Source: Cloacibacillus sp.
GTDB lineage: Bacteria > Synergistota > Synergistia > Synergistales > Synergistaceae
Length of the DNA stretch: 57,011 nucleotides
Direction: 5' to 3'
Assembly (NCBI GenBank): GCA_036655895.1
Contig: JAVVPF010000020.1
Span: 1-57,011, forward strand
Shown here: positions 10,967-38,400 of the stretch, piece by piece
Layout: each line of letters starts with the position of its first letter
How positions within the stretch are numbered: position 1 is the first letter of the stretch
Translations under genes and position numbers: made by a program
The notes under the pieces: generated by a model
The model's input: the letters and a program-made list of their open reading frames with translations, nothing else
Told to the model about the DNA's origin: nothing
Database searches by the model: none

Positions 10967-13222
10967 CTACAGAGGCAGGCTCTCGCGTAAATATTGTGCG
11001 GTGACAGAGGCTTCGCATTCAAGCATACCCCGCGGTGTTCCTGCGTAGAGTATACAGCCGCCAGCGCCTCCTCCTCCGGGGCCAAGCTCCAGAATCCAGT
11101 CGGCCTCCTTCATCACATCGACGCTGTGCTCGACGAGAAAGAGCGTGTTGCCGGCGTCGGTCATTTCGTTGAAGAGCCTCATCAGAGTTTTTATGTCGTC
11201 CAGATGCAGGCCGTCCGTCGGTTCGTCGAGGACGAAGATAGTGCCGCGTCGGTTTAAGTTTGACGCCAGCTTAACGCGCTGCAGCTCGCCGCCGGAAAGC
11301 GTCGTCATAGACTGGTTCAAATGCAGATACCCGAGGCCCACGCGCCGCAGCGAAGAGAGTTTTTCGCAAAGCGGCAGTCCCTTGAAAAATTCCCACGCGT
11401 CATCCACCGTCATGTCCATCACCTGAGCGATGTTTTTGCCGTTGTATGAGAAGGCAAGCGCCTCCTGTGAATAACGCTTGCCGCGGCAGAGATCGCAGAC
11501 GGTCTCTATGGCGTCCATAAAGGCCATGCCGGAGACTATCATCCCGGAACCGCCGCAGGCGGGGCAGGCTCCCTTGGAGTTGAAGCTGAACCACGACGCC
11601 GACGTTTTGTTTGCCGAGGCAAAGAGCGCGCGAATGTCGTCCGCAATGTCAAGATAGGTGGCCGGAGTTGAACGCAGGTTGATGCCGATGTTCCGCTGGC
11701 CTATGAAAATCACTTCCTCCCGGCACTGTCTCTGGAACGATTCCATAAGAGAACTTTTGCCGGAGCCTGCGACGCCAGCTATAACCGTCATGACGCCCAT
11801 CGGCAGCTGCGTGCTTACATTCTTTAAGTTGTGCCGCGAGGTCGGGCCGACCTGAGTCCAGCCCGCAGGCGTTCGCAGCTCGTCTTTGAACGGACTTTTT
11901 TTCTTCAGCATCCGCCCCGTTACGCTCTCTGAGGCAAGCAGCCCGTCGTAATTGCCCTCGTAGACTATCATGCCACCCGCGCTCCCCGCGCCCGGCCCCA
12001 TGTCTACTACGTGGTCCGCCAGCTTTATCACCTCGCGGTGGTGCTCCACGATGAGCACGGTGTTGCCGTGGTCGCGCAGCGAGCAGAGCGAATTTTTGAG
12101 CAGGCTGATGTCCTTCGGGTGAAGCCCGACGCTTGGCTCGTCCAGCACGTAGGCCATGTCCGTAAGCGCAGAATTTATATATTTAGCTATCTTGATGCGC
12201 TGCGCCTCGCCGCCGGAGAGCGTGCTCGTGCCTCGCGCAAGCGAGAGATAGCCGAGCCCTATCTGCACGAGGGCGCCCAGCCGCCGGGAAAGCTCGCGCT
12301 TTATGTCTGCTGCGAGCGGGTCGGTTATCGAATTTACAAATGAAAGCGCCTCCGGTATAGGCATCGCAGTAACGTCCGCAATATTTTTGCCGTTGATGAG
12401 GCAGTTGCGCACCTTTTCGTTGACGCGCGAGCCGCCGCACTCCGGGCAGGGGAAGCTATCCACCATCTTGTCCAGAACGTGCGAGAAGCGCTTGCCCTCC
12501 TTAGTCGTGATGATGCTGCGGTACATGCGCGGAAAGATGCCCTCGAACTTCGCCGTCTTCGGCCAGTTTGAGGGAGGGTTTTTCAGCTTTATCTGCGGAG
12601 AGTGCAGAAAAAGTTCAAGCTCCTCCGGCGAGTAGTCACGTATCTTTTTATCAAGGTCGAAGAGTCCACTGTAGGCGTAGCGCTTCCAGCGCCACAGCCC
12701 GTAGCCGAAGGTGGGAAAATGTATGGTGTCTTCGTCGTTCAGGCTCTTGTTGAAATCCACCAGCTTGTGGATGTCGAGGTCGTTTACGACGCCTATTCCG
12801 TCGCAGCGCGGGCATTTTCCCGCCGGATGGTTGAACGAGAAAGAGTCGGAATAGCCGATGAAGGGACGCCCTACGCGTGAGAAGAGCAGGCGCAGAATGG
12901 AATAGATGTCCGTATAGGTGCCGACGGTGGAGCGAGTGTTGAGCGCCGGTTTCTTCTGGTCGATGACGATGGTCACCGGCAGGTTGAAGATGCCCTCGGC
13001 GTTGGGACGTCCGTATTTGGGCAGATACTGCTGCACAAAGCTGGGGAAGGTCTCGTTCAGCTCGCGCCGCGACTCCGCGGCGATGGTGTCCAGACAGAGC
13101 GACGATTTTCCAGAGCCAGAGACCCCGGTAAATACAGTTATGCACTTTTTAGGAATGGAAAGCGAGACGTTGCGAAGGTTGTTCTCAAAGGCGTTCTTTA
13201 TCTCTATATTGTCATAAGGCAT
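10967..13222 (-). CDS. UvrA-like ABC ATPase, short form lacking the UvrB-binding insertion
   Basis: The product has 751 residues, against about 940 for housekeeping UvrA. It carries two ABC ATPase modules: GVSGSGKSSL near residue 33 and GVAGSGKSSL near 490 (Walker A), and two signatures TLSGGEAQRIKIA and TLSGGELQRVKLA, each followed by LDEP. Zinc-binding CxxC pairs are seen (CPRCDGIG, CPECGGSR, CPACGGSG). The shorter length fits the UvrA2/DrrC-type paralogues, in which the UvrB-binding domain is missing; some are tied to drug or DNA-damage tolerance. The start is set at the ATG at 13220-13222 (MPYDNIEIKNAFENN), because the 19 codons upstream lack family similarity. It has no partner gene nearby. 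Confidence 0.88.
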   Translation of the reverse strand: MPYDNIEIKNAFENNLRNVSLSIPKKCITVFTGVSGSGKSSLCLDTIAAESRRELNETFPSFVQQYLPKYGRPNAEGIFNLPVTIVIDQKKPALNTRSTVGTYTDIYSILRLLFSRVGRPFIGYSDSFSFNHPAGKCPRCDGIGVVNDLDIHKLVDFNKSLNDEDTIHFPTFGYGLWRWKRYAYSGLFDLDKKIRDYSPEELELFLHSPQIKLKNPPSNWPKTAKFEGIFPRMYRSIITTKEGKRFSHVLDKMVDSFPCPECGGSRVNEKVRNCLINGKNIADVTAMPIPEALSFVNSITDPLAADIKRELSRRLGALVQIGLGYLSLARGTSTLSGGEAQRIKIAKYINSALTDMAYVLDEPSVGLHPKDISLLKNSLCSLRDHGNTVLIVEHHREVIKLADHVVDMGPGAGSAGGMIVYEGNYDGLLASESVTGRMLKKKSPFKDELRTPAGWTQVGPTSRHNLKNVSTQLPMGVMTVIAGVAGSGKSSLMESFQRQCREEVIFIGQRNIGINLRSTPATYLDIADDIRALFASANKTSASWFSFNSKGACPACGGSGMIVSGMAFMDAIETVCDLCRGKRYSQEALAFSYNGKNIAQVMDMTVDDAWEFFKGLPLCEKLSSLRRVGLGYLHLNQSMTTLSGGELQRVKLASNLNRRGTIFVLDEPTDGLHLDDIKTLMRLFNEMTDAGNTLFLVEHSVDVMKEADWILELGPGGGGAGGCILYAGTPRGMLECEASVTAQYLRESLPL

Positions 13223-13434
13223 AGTTTTATCCCCACTTAAGAAATTAGGTCCAGCGCCGTTTATTATAGCATGACGCACAAGAGCCGGCCGGGGCGTCTG
13301 CGACCAGAAGAGAACAAAAGGGCGTGGAACAACGGTTCGCCGCGCCGCAATGAATGGGCGGCATGAGAACGTTACGCAGCATCATACGTGTCAACGCGGC
13401 AGAGAGTAGTAGCGGAAGATAAGTACTGCGTTTG

Positions 13435-13462
13435 TTGACAGCGGCTTCCATTAACGTATAAT
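13435..13462 (+). promoter_or_regulatory. Strong promoter ahead of tandem repeats
   Basis: TTGACA (13435-13440) and TATAAT (13457-13462) both match consensus exactly with a 16-bp spacer. Transcription would start near 13469, just before the 35-bp repeats. Confidence 0.85.
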
Positions 13463-13473
13463 ATTAATCAGAG

Positions 13474-13579
13474 TTAAAAAAGTTGGAGGACCCTGCCGTA
13501 AGTGGGAGCTTAAAAAGTTGGAGGACCCTGCCGCAAGTGGGAGCTTAAAAAGTTGGAGGACCCTGCCGCAAGTGGGAGC
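13474..13579 (+). repeat. Three tandem 35-bp repeats
   Basis: Copies lie at 13474-13509 (36 bp, one extra A and one C-to-T change), 13510-13544 and 13545-13579, with a partial fourth copy running to about 13590. The last two are identical. The period is not a multiple of three and there are no spacers, so it is neither coding nor CRISPR. Confidence 0.95.
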
Positions 13580-13589
13580 TTAAAAAGTT

Positions 13590-13620
13590 GAGAGGGGGCT
13601 TTTGCGCCCCTTCTCTTTTA
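13590..13620 (+). terminator. Terminator closing the repeat unit
   Basis: Positions 13590-13599 pair with 13606-13615 (10 bp with one G-U) and are followed by TTTTA. It lies directly after the partial fourth repeat and before the MATE gene. Confidence 0.75.
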
Positions 13621-13715
13621 GTAAGCGCGGAAGAATTTAAAATTTCCGTGCGCGTCGTCTCCTTCTTTGATTTTTTGCAAAAGCAGAGGGCGCTGTGCGA
13701 GTTGGGGGCGTGGAA

Positions 13716-15065
13716 ATGGCGGCTAAAGAGATAAACATGACCGAAGGAAGGCCGCTTGCGCGCATTGCGGCCTTTGCCGCGCCGATAATCGCGGCGGGCG
13801 TCGTCCAGCAGTTCTATCAGCTTGGGGATACGCTCATCGCAGGGCGTTTTCTTGGCAGCGGCGCACTTGCCGCAGTCTCCAATTCTTCTATGTGCGTCTT
13901 CTTTATAATGGTGCTTTTTGCTGGCATCGGAAACGGAGCCTCTATCGTGCTTTCGCAGCTCTTTGGTGCTGGCTGCGATGAACAGGTTCGTTCCGCGGTC
14001 GACACCTCGTTCGTTTTTTTCTGCCTCGGCGGCCTCGTCTGTACGGCGAGCGGACTTGCTGCAAGCGCTCCGCTGCTTCGGCTTCTTGCTACGCCCGCTG
14101 AGATATACGGCGACACGCTCGTTTATCTTCGCATCCTTTGCGCGGGGATGGCGCCGATTTTTGGTTATTCAGTCATAATGGGGCTTCTGAACGCGGTTGG
14201 CGATTCCAGAACGCCGCTTGAAATGCTCATTTGCTCCACTATCTTAAACCTGGGGCTCGACCTGCTTTTTGTGACGCGGTTTGACGCTGGCGTGGCGGGC
14301 CTTGCGGTGGCAACCGTCATTTCGCAGAGCGCGGCGCTTGCCGGCTGCGTGATATATATGAACAGACGAAAGAGCGTCATTCGGCTTCGTCTGCACGGGC
14401 TTTCCTTCAGCTTTCGGATGCTGCGGCGCATCGTGGGCATGGGGCTGCCGACGGGGCTTCAGGACGCGCTTATGATAATTTCCGTCATGGTGCTGCAAAA
14501 CAGGATAAACGGATTCGGCGTGGCGGTAATTGCCGGCCGGAGCATCGTCGGGCGCATAGAGGGCTTTCTGCTGCTGCCGATACACGGCTTCGGGGCTGCC
14601 GTTATGACCTTTATCGCGCAAAATTACGGCGCGGGAAAGAAGGACCGCGTCATGTCCGGGCTTAGGCTGGGGCTCGTTATGATGACGGTGCTTTCCGTCG
14701 GGCTTGCGGCCGCCTTGCTGCTTTCATCGGGCGCGCTGCTTGCGCTCTTTACGACAAACGAGGCGACGGTTGCCGCCGCCCGCAGATGTATAAATATAAC
14801 GGTCCCATGCTACATCTTTTACGCGCTGGCCGTCGTCTGGCAGAGCTTTTTTCGCGGCTGCGGCGATACGCTCTTTCCTCTGGTTGTCTCGCTGCTGACA
14901 CAATTTGCCTTCCGCATCGCCACTATCGACCTTTTTCTTTTCTATATCCCGGACCCTACGGGCGTCTGGTACGCCTACGCCGCAAGCTGGCTGCTGATGC
15001 TCGCGTTTGACGTTGTTTATTATAAGACGGGGCTGTGGCGTCGGTTTGGCGGCGTGAAGCTCTAA
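13716..15065 (+). CDS. MATE-family multidrug efflux transporter
   Basis: The 449-residue integral membrane protein has about twelve hydrophobic helices and the MATE opening ITEGRPL-type head: NMTEGRPLARIAAFAAPIIAAGVVQ, split by family-typical LGDTLIAGRFLG. The second half repeats the pattern (PTGLQDALMIISVMVLQNRING, FIAQNYGAGKKDRV). The family exports organic cations or flavin-like compounds using Na+ or H+ gradients. The ATG at 13716 has GGGGG about 7 nt upstream. In-frame GTGs at 13695 and 13710 are alternatives. Expression may depend on readthrough of the repeat-unit terminator upstream. Confidence 0.9.
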   Translation: MAAKEINMTEGRPLARIAAFAAPIIAAGVVQQFYQLGDTLIAGRFLGSGALAAVSNSSMCVFFIMVLFAGIGNGASIVLSQLFGAGCDEQVRSAVDTSFVFFCLGGLVCTASGLAASAPLLRLLATPAEIYGDTLVYLRILCAGMAPIFGYSVIMGLLNAVGDSRTPLEMLICSTILNLGLDLLFVTRFDAGVAGLAVATVISQSAALAGCVIYMNRRKSVIRLRLHGLSFSFRMLRRIVGMGLPTGLQDALMIISVMVLQNRINGFGVAVIAGRSIVGRIEGFLLLPIHGFGAAVMTFIAQNYGAGKKDRVMSGLRLGLVMMTVLSVGLAAALLLSSGALLALFTTNEATVAAARRCINITVPCYIFYALAVVWQSFFRGCGDTLFPLVVSLLTQFAFRIATIDLFLFYIPDPTGVWYAYAASWLLMLAFDVVYYKTGLWRRFGGVKL

Positions 15066-38018: not shown

Positions 38019-38054
38019 AAAAATCCCCGCCCTCCTGATTAACAGAGGACGGGG
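38019..38054 (-). terminator. T-box terminator
   Basis: On the minus strand CCCCGTCCTC (38045-38054) pairs with GAGGGCGGGG (about 38025-38034, one mismatch), followed by ATTTTTATAT. It competes with the T-box antiterminator. Confidence 0.88.
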
Positions 38055-38400
38055 AATATTGACCCGTGGTACCACCTCAGTTTGGCGTCTCCTCGCGGAG
38101 CGCGCCCTCGTCGGGTACGCGGCGAAAGAATGCCATATACCCTGTCCGATATAACGGTCGAACCCGTCGCAGCCTACTTAGGAAGCCGTTTATCATATAT
38201 GCCCTCCACAAAGCCTGTACTTGCCCCTGCTGGACGACCTCTTATGATCAATGACCCAATATCCCTTTTGGTGCGCCGCTCCTGGAATGTATTTCGGTTC
38301 GTTCGTCCGCCGCCTCGCACCATCCGCCGGCTCTCTGAAGGACTGAAAACGCGCCTACTTCTTTCCCGTCATTGCGTTTGCCTCTCTATGTGAGACATTA
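38019..38400 (-). promoter_or_regulatory. T-box riboswitch leader with UAC (Tyr) specifier
   Basis: On the minus strand the leader shows all expected parts: AAAGAAGTAG near the base of stem I, CAGAGAGCCGG and GGTGCGAG (38316-38337, AG bulge and distal loop), the specifier TAC at 38289-38291 in the context CGAAA-TAC-ATTC, then GGAGC, and the antiterminator T-box AGGTGGTACCACGGG at 38063-38077. Its UGGU can pair with the ACCA end of uncharged tRNA-Tyr. A terminator follows. It reads tRNA-Tyr charging and turns on the downstream acyl-CoA synthetase when uncharged tRNA-Tyr accumulates. Confidence 0.92.

What the first reader, a model, noticed from the sequence alone, without database searches (positions are those of the whole stretch)
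13435..13620. Consensus promoter, three 35-bp repeats and a terminator: new small RNA or leader
Seen: TTGACA-16-TATAAT, three near-identical contiguous repeats each with GGAGGA and GGGAG, then an intrinsic terminator. The unit has no plausible ORF and the repeat length is not divisible by three. It sits 95 nt before a MATE efflux gene. Inferred options: an abundant small RNA that titrates a GGA-binding protein such as CsrA; a decoy resembling ribosome binding sites; or a leader that controls MATE by attenuation.
Basis: partly seen in the sequence, partly recalled or inferred. Interest (0 to 1): 0.72.

Follow-up and report, generated by a model that had tools for sequence, protein, structure and literature searches.

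The report
Toxin-free RNA antitoxin (orphan ToxI)
This stretch encodes a small RNA that is the antidote half of a known bacterial poison-and-antidote system, but the poison gene is missing, which suggests that some bacteria keep the antidote on its own, perhaps to disarm invading DNA that carries the poison.

Summary
In detail: a perfect -35/-10 pair, three contiguous 35-nt repeats (3.4 copies) and an intrinsic terminator. The repeats are not a CsrA sponge or a MATE leader. They are the antitoxin array of a type III (ToxIN/AbiQ) toxin-antitoxin system. A same-family genome carries a 90%-identical array directly upstream of a ToxN gene. A covariance model trained only on ToxN-linked arrays finds this array, and nothing else in the window, at E 6.5e-19. 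Here the toxin is missing: a MATE gene follows, and ToxN (PF13958) is not found anywhere in the 99%-complete genome. So it is an orphan type III antitoxin. It is not alone: 8 of 21 genomes with such arrays lack any detectable ToxN, and one Clostridia MAG carries five consecutive toxin-free cassettes. Orphan arrays mostly keep promoter and terminator, and a covarying pseudoknot stem (98% paired). Best explanation: a stand-alone neutraliser of ToxN-type RNases arriving on plasmids or prophages. Main rival: a relic of a decayed ToxIN locus. Identity is well supported; function is inferred.

The parts
13435..13462 (+). sigma-70 promoter, TTGACA-16-TATAAT
   Evidence: 12 of 12 matches; 0 of 100 shuffles of the upstream stretch as good
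13477..13511 (+). antitoxin repeat 1 (AAAAAGTTGGAGGACCCTGCCGTAAGTGGGAGCTT); S1 arms GG 13485-13486 and CC 13496-13497; S2 arms CCC 13491-13493 and GGG 13504-13506
   Evidence: pairing scheme tested on homologues
13512..13546 (+). antitoxin repeat 2
13547..13581 (+). antitoxin repeat 3
13582..13588 (+). partial fourth repeat (5' part of the unit)
13590..13619 (+). intrinsic terminator (stem-loop 13590-13615 plus T run)
13620..13694 (+). spacer where a ToxN gene would be expected to begin; no toxin gene and no significant toxin remnant
   Evidence: no ToxN found in genome; remnant tests
13695..15065 (+). MATE-family transporter gene (neighbour, probably unrelated)

Best explanation
Shown by sequence: the locus is an orphan type III (ToxI-type) antitoxin cassette, with a strong promoter, three and a bit 35-nt repeats that each can form an H-type pseudoknot, and a terminator, but no ToxN gene behind it or elsewhere in the assembled genome. 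Inferred: it is transcribed into an RNA of about 150 nt whose pseudoknots bind and inactivate ToxN-family endoribonucleases, which would cut the precursor at the A-rich linkers. With no resident ToxN, its use would be to neutralise ToxN carried in by plasmids, prophages or neighbouring strains. That would let the cell shed an addictive element (anti-addiction), or an element overcome host abortive infection, as phage pseudo-ToxI does. My weights: ToxI homologue 0.95, truly orphan 0.92, kept for such a neutralising role rather than a passing relic about 0.55.
For: Homology: blastn of the region to a Fusobacterium plasmid hits the array just upstream of a ToxN/AbiQ gene (E 2e-3). Genome G134 of the same family has a 90%-identical 3-copy array (E 1.5e-41), then a terminator and ToxN (PF13958 E 7.3e-40), and that protein matches solved ToxN chains (7d8o E 1e-16, 2xd0, 4ato) and AbiQ 4glk. 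Model R2, trained only on 13 ToxN-linked tandem pairs without the window, gives the window 77 bits, E 6.5e-19, its only match in 57 kb. Stems S1 and S2 are supported across 22 tandem pairs: 89.4% of cells paired against 40-52% when slid, 6 of 12 pairs with changes on both sides. Orphan state: PF13958 not found in G000 (found in 10 of 185 genomes of the phylum in the same search); tblastn with the G134 toxin finds nothing. Recurrence: 8 of 21 genomes with real arrays have no ToxN found. Maintenance: S2 in 19 orphan matches is 98.2% paired with 20 doubly changed cells, like ToxN-bearing loci (99.0%). 9 of 16 orphan cassettes tested have a 12-of-12 promoter. Precedent: excess pseudo-ToxI RNA blocks ToxIN abortive infection (PMC3475682, abstract and passages read).
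Against: No expression or neutralisation data. The compensatory changes may predate loss of the toxin. The third S1 pair is A.G instead of U-A in every copy, though the same GGA..GCC core occurs in ToxN-linked units of L046, L047 and L051. In E. coli, 52 genomes carry a ToxI array and 52 carry toxN (lists not compared), so orphans are not general. No phage carrying an orphan array of this type was found. No mobile-element gene was recognised next to the window cassette (neighbours read only).
Confidence: 0.6

Rival explanations
1. Relic: a former ToxIN locus lost its toxin gene by deletion, and the antitoxin is a harmless remnant that has not yet decayed. Toxins are lost first because an antitoxin without a toxin is harmless, whereas the reverse is lethal.
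For: Same cassette order as in intact loci. G390 has an array beside a broken ToxN (two fragments, one with a stop inside), as a half-way stage would look. Loss of the toxin alone is the safe direction.
Against: Promoter, three near-identical copies, S2 stem and terminator are all intact. Eight genomes show the state, and G185 has five successive toxin-free cassettes, which is hard to get by passive decay. No significant toxN remnant between terminator and MATE (51 of 500 and 808 of 2000 shuffles score as high).
Confidence: 0.33
2. The antitoxin acts on a ToxN encoded elsewhere: in an unassembled part of this genome, on a plasmid, or on a divergent toxin that the profile misses.
For: The assembly is 160 contigs, 99.28% complete. 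G185 has toxin-free cassettes on one contig and a ToxN on another.
Against: PF13958 and tblastn find nothing in G000. Type III toxins are encoded next to their antitoxins in the reviewed systems (PMC5086642, section 4).
Confidence: 0.1
3. Cis-acting leader that controls the MATE gene by attenuation at the terminator.
For: Same strand, about 96 nt from terminator tail to the ATG; no promoter-like site was listed between 13620 and 13716.
Against: Four MATE relatives in the family lack it. Homologous arrays precede ToxN or unrelated genes, and no second MATE gene was recognised behind an array in the loci read. The repeats are explained by type III homology.
Confidence: 0.05
4. A sponge for CsrA or another GGA-binding protein, or a Shine-Dalgarno decoy.
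For: GGA motifs in each unit.
Against: No CsrA found in the genome, with controls positive. The first GGA lies in the pseudoknot stem region and varies as GGU/ACC, GGC/GCC and GGA/GCC among homologues.
Confidence: 0.02

Closest known systems
Type III toxin-antitoxin systems of the ToxIN/AbiQ family, antitoxin part (ToxI, antiQ)
   Same: Single promoter, tandem repeats of 34-37 nt, intrinsic terminator, pseudoknot with two short stems. antiQ is 35 nt x 2.8 (PMC5086642, section 5), here 35 nt x 3.4. Sequence homology to ToxN-linked arrays.
   Different: No toxin gene downstream or found in the genome.
Pseudo-ToxI of phage PhiTE
   Same: Toxin-free repeats resembling ToxI that can suppress ToxN in vivo (PMC3475682, abstract and passages read).
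   Different: PhiTE is a lytic phage with 1.5 repeats in wild type, expanded by selection; here it is a bacterial contig with a complete three-copy cassette and its own terminator.
Orphan antitoxins of type II systems and chromosomal CcdA anti-addiction
   Same: Proposed logic: a chromosomal antitoxin that disarms incoming addiction modules (PMC7354431, passages read).
   Different: Those are proteins; this is RNA.

Membership tests
Type III (ToxIN) antitoxin, RNA part | Tandem array of about 34-37-nt repeats behind a promoter | tested here: met
Type III (ToxIN) antitoxin, RNA part | Rho-independent terminator directly after the array | tested here: met
Type III (ToxIN) antitoxin, RNA part | Sequence and structure homology to ToxN-linked repeats | tested here: met
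   90% identity to G134 array; E 6.5e-19 with a model that excludes the window
Type III (ToxIN) antitoxin, RNA part | H-type pseudoknot in each unit | tested here: inconclusive
   S2 CCC/GGG intact; S1 has two G-C pairs, and its third pair is A.G as in some ToxN-linked units; support is from covariation across homologues, not from probing
Type III (ToxIN) antitoxin, RNA part | Neutralises a ToxN toxin in the cell | not testable with these tools
   needs an assay
Complete type III toxin-antitoxin system | ToxN-family endoribonuclease gene downstream of the terminator | tested here: not met
   MATE follows; PF13958 not found in genome, tblastn empty
CsrA-titrating small RNA | CsrA encoded in the genome | tested here: not met
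   controls positive in 3 of 14 genomes
Cis-regulatory leader of MATE genes | Conserved in front of MATE genes of relatives | tested here: not met
   none in front of the four closest MATE relatives

The most novel reading that the evidence does not exclude
Toxin-free type III antitoxin cassettes form a recurrent kind of element: single cassettes, or banks of up to five with different repeats, kept by bacteria and their mobile elements as RNA immunity against ToxN-type abortive-infection and addiction toxins. The window cassette is one member; the five-cassette bank in a Clostridia MAG, next to a zeta-toxin-family gene and a tyrosine-recombinase-like gene, is the clearest case.
Probability: 0.4. 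Interest if true: 0.8.

Novelty: new variant of a known kind. Interest (0 to 1): 0.62.

Why it matters
Surveys of type III systems, as described in the review read here, start from the toxin gene and then look for repeats upstream (PMC5086642, section 17), so antitoxins without toxins would be invisible to them. If such orphans are common and active, RNA anti-addiction joins the protein kind, and the long-argued use of orphan antitoxins becomes directly testable: the RNA is short, and a matching ToxN from a same-family genome (G134) is at hand. In the held papers I found no description of an orphan type III antitoxin in a bacterial genome (search listings; the term ToxIN also matched the plain word toxin, which makes uninformative). 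The 2012 paper in Nucleic Acids Research that I recall as the main classification is not held, so this is not proof of absence.

Tried and rejected
CsrA sponge: rejected, no csrA found. MATE leader: rejected as main reading. Known Rfam family: no useful match to the window array; but none of the five ToxN-linked loci among the eight given to one search matched an antitoxin family either, so Rfam is uninformative here. Toxin remnant between terminator and MATE: I noticed KNLKF and KISV stretches that looked like ToxN pieces; (ungapped) gave 67 of 200 shuffles as high for the toxin starts and 2 of 60 for full-length toxins; (gapped, dinucleotide shuffles) gave 808 of 2000 and 51 of 500, so I rejected it. 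An earlier remnant test returned no scores and is void. Array hits in G110 and G112 match only the terminator. Model R1 hits in G021, G022, G175 and G550 are coding-like repeats or single weak matches (read by eye) and were dropped before the count of 21. Viral collections: my first two patterns found nothing; the second also missed the window itself and was corrected; no viral orphan was found; one viral contig with an intact ToxIN was found.

Full report
WHAT IS THERE. Window 13435-13619 holds a 12-of-12 sigma-70 promoter, three 35-nt repeats plus part of a fourth, and an intrinsic terminator. The unit is AAAAAGTTGGAGGACCCTGCCGYAAGTGGGAGCTT. It occurs three times in the 2.9-Mb genome, all in this array. 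The next gene on the same strand is a MATE transporter (PF01554, E 6.9e-50); upstream, on the other strand, lies a UvrA-like ATPase gene (10967-13279; ABC_tran match, UvrA by my reading).

HOW IT WAS IDENTIFIED. A blastn search of plasmids gave one meaningful match, to a Fusobacterium polymorphum plasmid (E 2e-3, 75% identity). There the matching tandem array ends in a hairpin with a T run just before a gene annotated as type III ToxN/AbiQ toxin (PF13958 E 3.9e-47). In 185 genomes of the window's phylum, the array itself was found at 90% identity in G134, a member of the same family (E 1.5e-41). In G134 the ToxN gene follows at once: array, terminator, ATG. That protein matches the crystallised ToxN proteins 7d8o, 2xd0 and 4ato and AbiQ 4glk by sequence. 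Two further hits (G110, G112) match only the terminator.

MEMBERSHIP TEST THAT LEAVES THE WINDOW OUT. I aligned 13 tandem pairs from ToxN-linked arrays only (G134, Fusobacterium, a Clostridioides phage, Clostridia MAGs, G060) and built model R2. In the window it finds one place, 13475-13546, at 77 bits, E 6.5e-19. G134's array, 90% identical, is among the 13, so the test is not independent of it. The pseudoknot scheme (S1: GGU with ACC; S2: CCC with GGG, its 5' arm one base before the 3' arm of S1) was counted on 22 tandem pairs: 89.4% of cells paired, 6 of 12 pairs with changes on both sides, against 40-52% paired when the partner is slid. In the window the third S1 pair is A.G in all copies; the same GGA..GCC core is found in ToxN-linked units of L046, L047 and L051, so this is a natural variant rather than a sign of decay.

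THE TOXIN IS MISSING. PF13958 is found in 10 of 185 genomes of the phylum but not in the window's genome, which is 99.28% complete. tblastn with the G134 toxin finds nothing at E 10. The spacer before MATE holds no significant ToxN remnant.

ORPHANS ELSEWHERE. Model R1 (22 tandem pairs, including the window and L044) matched 8 of 185 genomes of the phylum and 17 of 394 genomes of the order of the Clostridia MAG G185. After dropping G021, G022, G175 and G550 as false, read by eye, 21 genomes remain. ToxN lies within 1.5 kb of an array in 13 of them. The other 8 (G000, G124, G194, G218, G336, G418, G467, G492) have no PF13958 match anywhere in the genome. For G467 the contig ends 566 bases beyond the array, so the missing neighbour is less certain there. 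Reading frames downstream of 11 toxin-free loci showed no shared family (all-against-all blastp printed no pair), so no common replacement toxin is seen. G124 belongs to the same family as the window's genome. G185 carries five consecutive promoter-array-terminator cassettes with no toxin between them on contig C2, and on C42 two more toxin-free cassettes in front of an intact one with ToxN.

ARE ORPHANS INTACT? With R2, 19 tandem matches in 11 orphan loci give S2 98.2% paired, all 6 pairs with changes on both sides and 20 doubly changed cells, 0 of 500 shuffles as high for cells paired. 17 matches in 14 ToxN-bearing loci give 99.0%; two of these 17 are toxin-free cassettes of G185 C42 inside L063. 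These alignments were fitted to the model's S2, so they lean towards it. Of 16 orphan cassettes scanned (L085 and one L065 cassette were not in the list), 10 by my first reading and 9 on recount of the table have a 12-of-12 promoter (five of G185, three of G336, G218 and the window make ten when the window is included; see the table for each row), and most have a terminator-like hairpin; of 13 ToxN-linked cassettes 6 have a 12-of-12 promoter and 13 a hairpin. For L077 and L082 the promoter was no better than shuffles (63 and 68 of 100), and for L058 and L072 my strict scan found no terminator, though by eye both have a hairpin with T run. Compensatory changes could date from before the toxin was lost.

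COUNTER-CHECK. In complete E. coli genomes a ToxI array is found in 52 of 5426 and toxN in 52 of 5426 (the two lists were not compared record by record), so toxin-free arrays are not a universal feature of type III loci.

FUNCTION. From established knowledge (PMC5086642, sections 4, 5, 9 and 17 read; PMC8860590 and PMC3475682, passages read), ToxN cuts its antitoxin precursor into monomers, each folding into a pseudoknot that locks ToxN away; about 2 or more repeats suffice. The window array has three. Pseudo-ToxI RNA made in excess blocks ToxIN-mediated abortive infection (PMC3475682). A toxin-free cassette would therefore protect against any ToxN that it fits. Whether it protects the cell from plasmid addiction, or a mobile element from host defence, is open. 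The tyrosine-recombinase-like gene beside the G185 bank and the integrase-like gene near the G194 orphan are by-eye readings. Alternatively it is a relic, since toxin loss is the safe direction; G390, with an array beside a broken ToxN, looks like that path, although an assembly error is possible.

WHAT I COULD NOT SETTLE. Expression, neutralisation, how old the orphan state is, and the organism's name (the phylum was not named by the tools; I suspect Synergistota from recall only). The novelty claim rests on held papers only (one search was uninformative).

Noticed in passing
L044 1010-2390 minus (G185:C2, CALZUA010000002.1): Five consecutive promoter-array-terminator cassettes with different ToxI-like repeats and no toxin gene between them, beside a Zeta_toxin-family gene (PF06414, E 8e-39) and a tyrosine-recombinase-like gene (by eye). 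The fifth cassette's repeats match the array of a ToxN-linked system in L046.
   Followed up: partly
L051 / L063 (G185:C42): A gene resembling the zeta-toxin gene (by eye), then two toxin-free antitoxin cassettes, then an intact cassette with ToxN: orphan and complete units side by side.
   Followed up: partly
L065 1-330 minus (G467:C25): Next to orphan ToxI cassettes, a different tandem array of about 55-nt units (core GCTTCGCTACCGTCTGACCACCATATCAGGAGAATGCGAC) before a terminator-like hairpin, with no gene: perhaps another RNA antitoxin type.
   Followed up: no
L074 (G390:C140): Array beside a ToxN gene broken into two fragments, one with an internal stop: possible half-way stage of toxin loss or an assembly error.
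   Followed up: no
L072 (G194:C1): Orphan array followed by genes that look like HicA and HicB and then a phage-type integrase (by eye), as if another toxin-antitoxin pair had taken ToxN's place in a prophage.
   Followed up: no
L096 12340-13012: Viral contig with an intact ToxIN placed between a repressor-like gene and an integrase-like gene (by eye); its repeats have different S2 stems.
   Followed up: partly
window 38042-38381 minus: T-box leader (RF00230, 95.8 bits).
   Followed up: no
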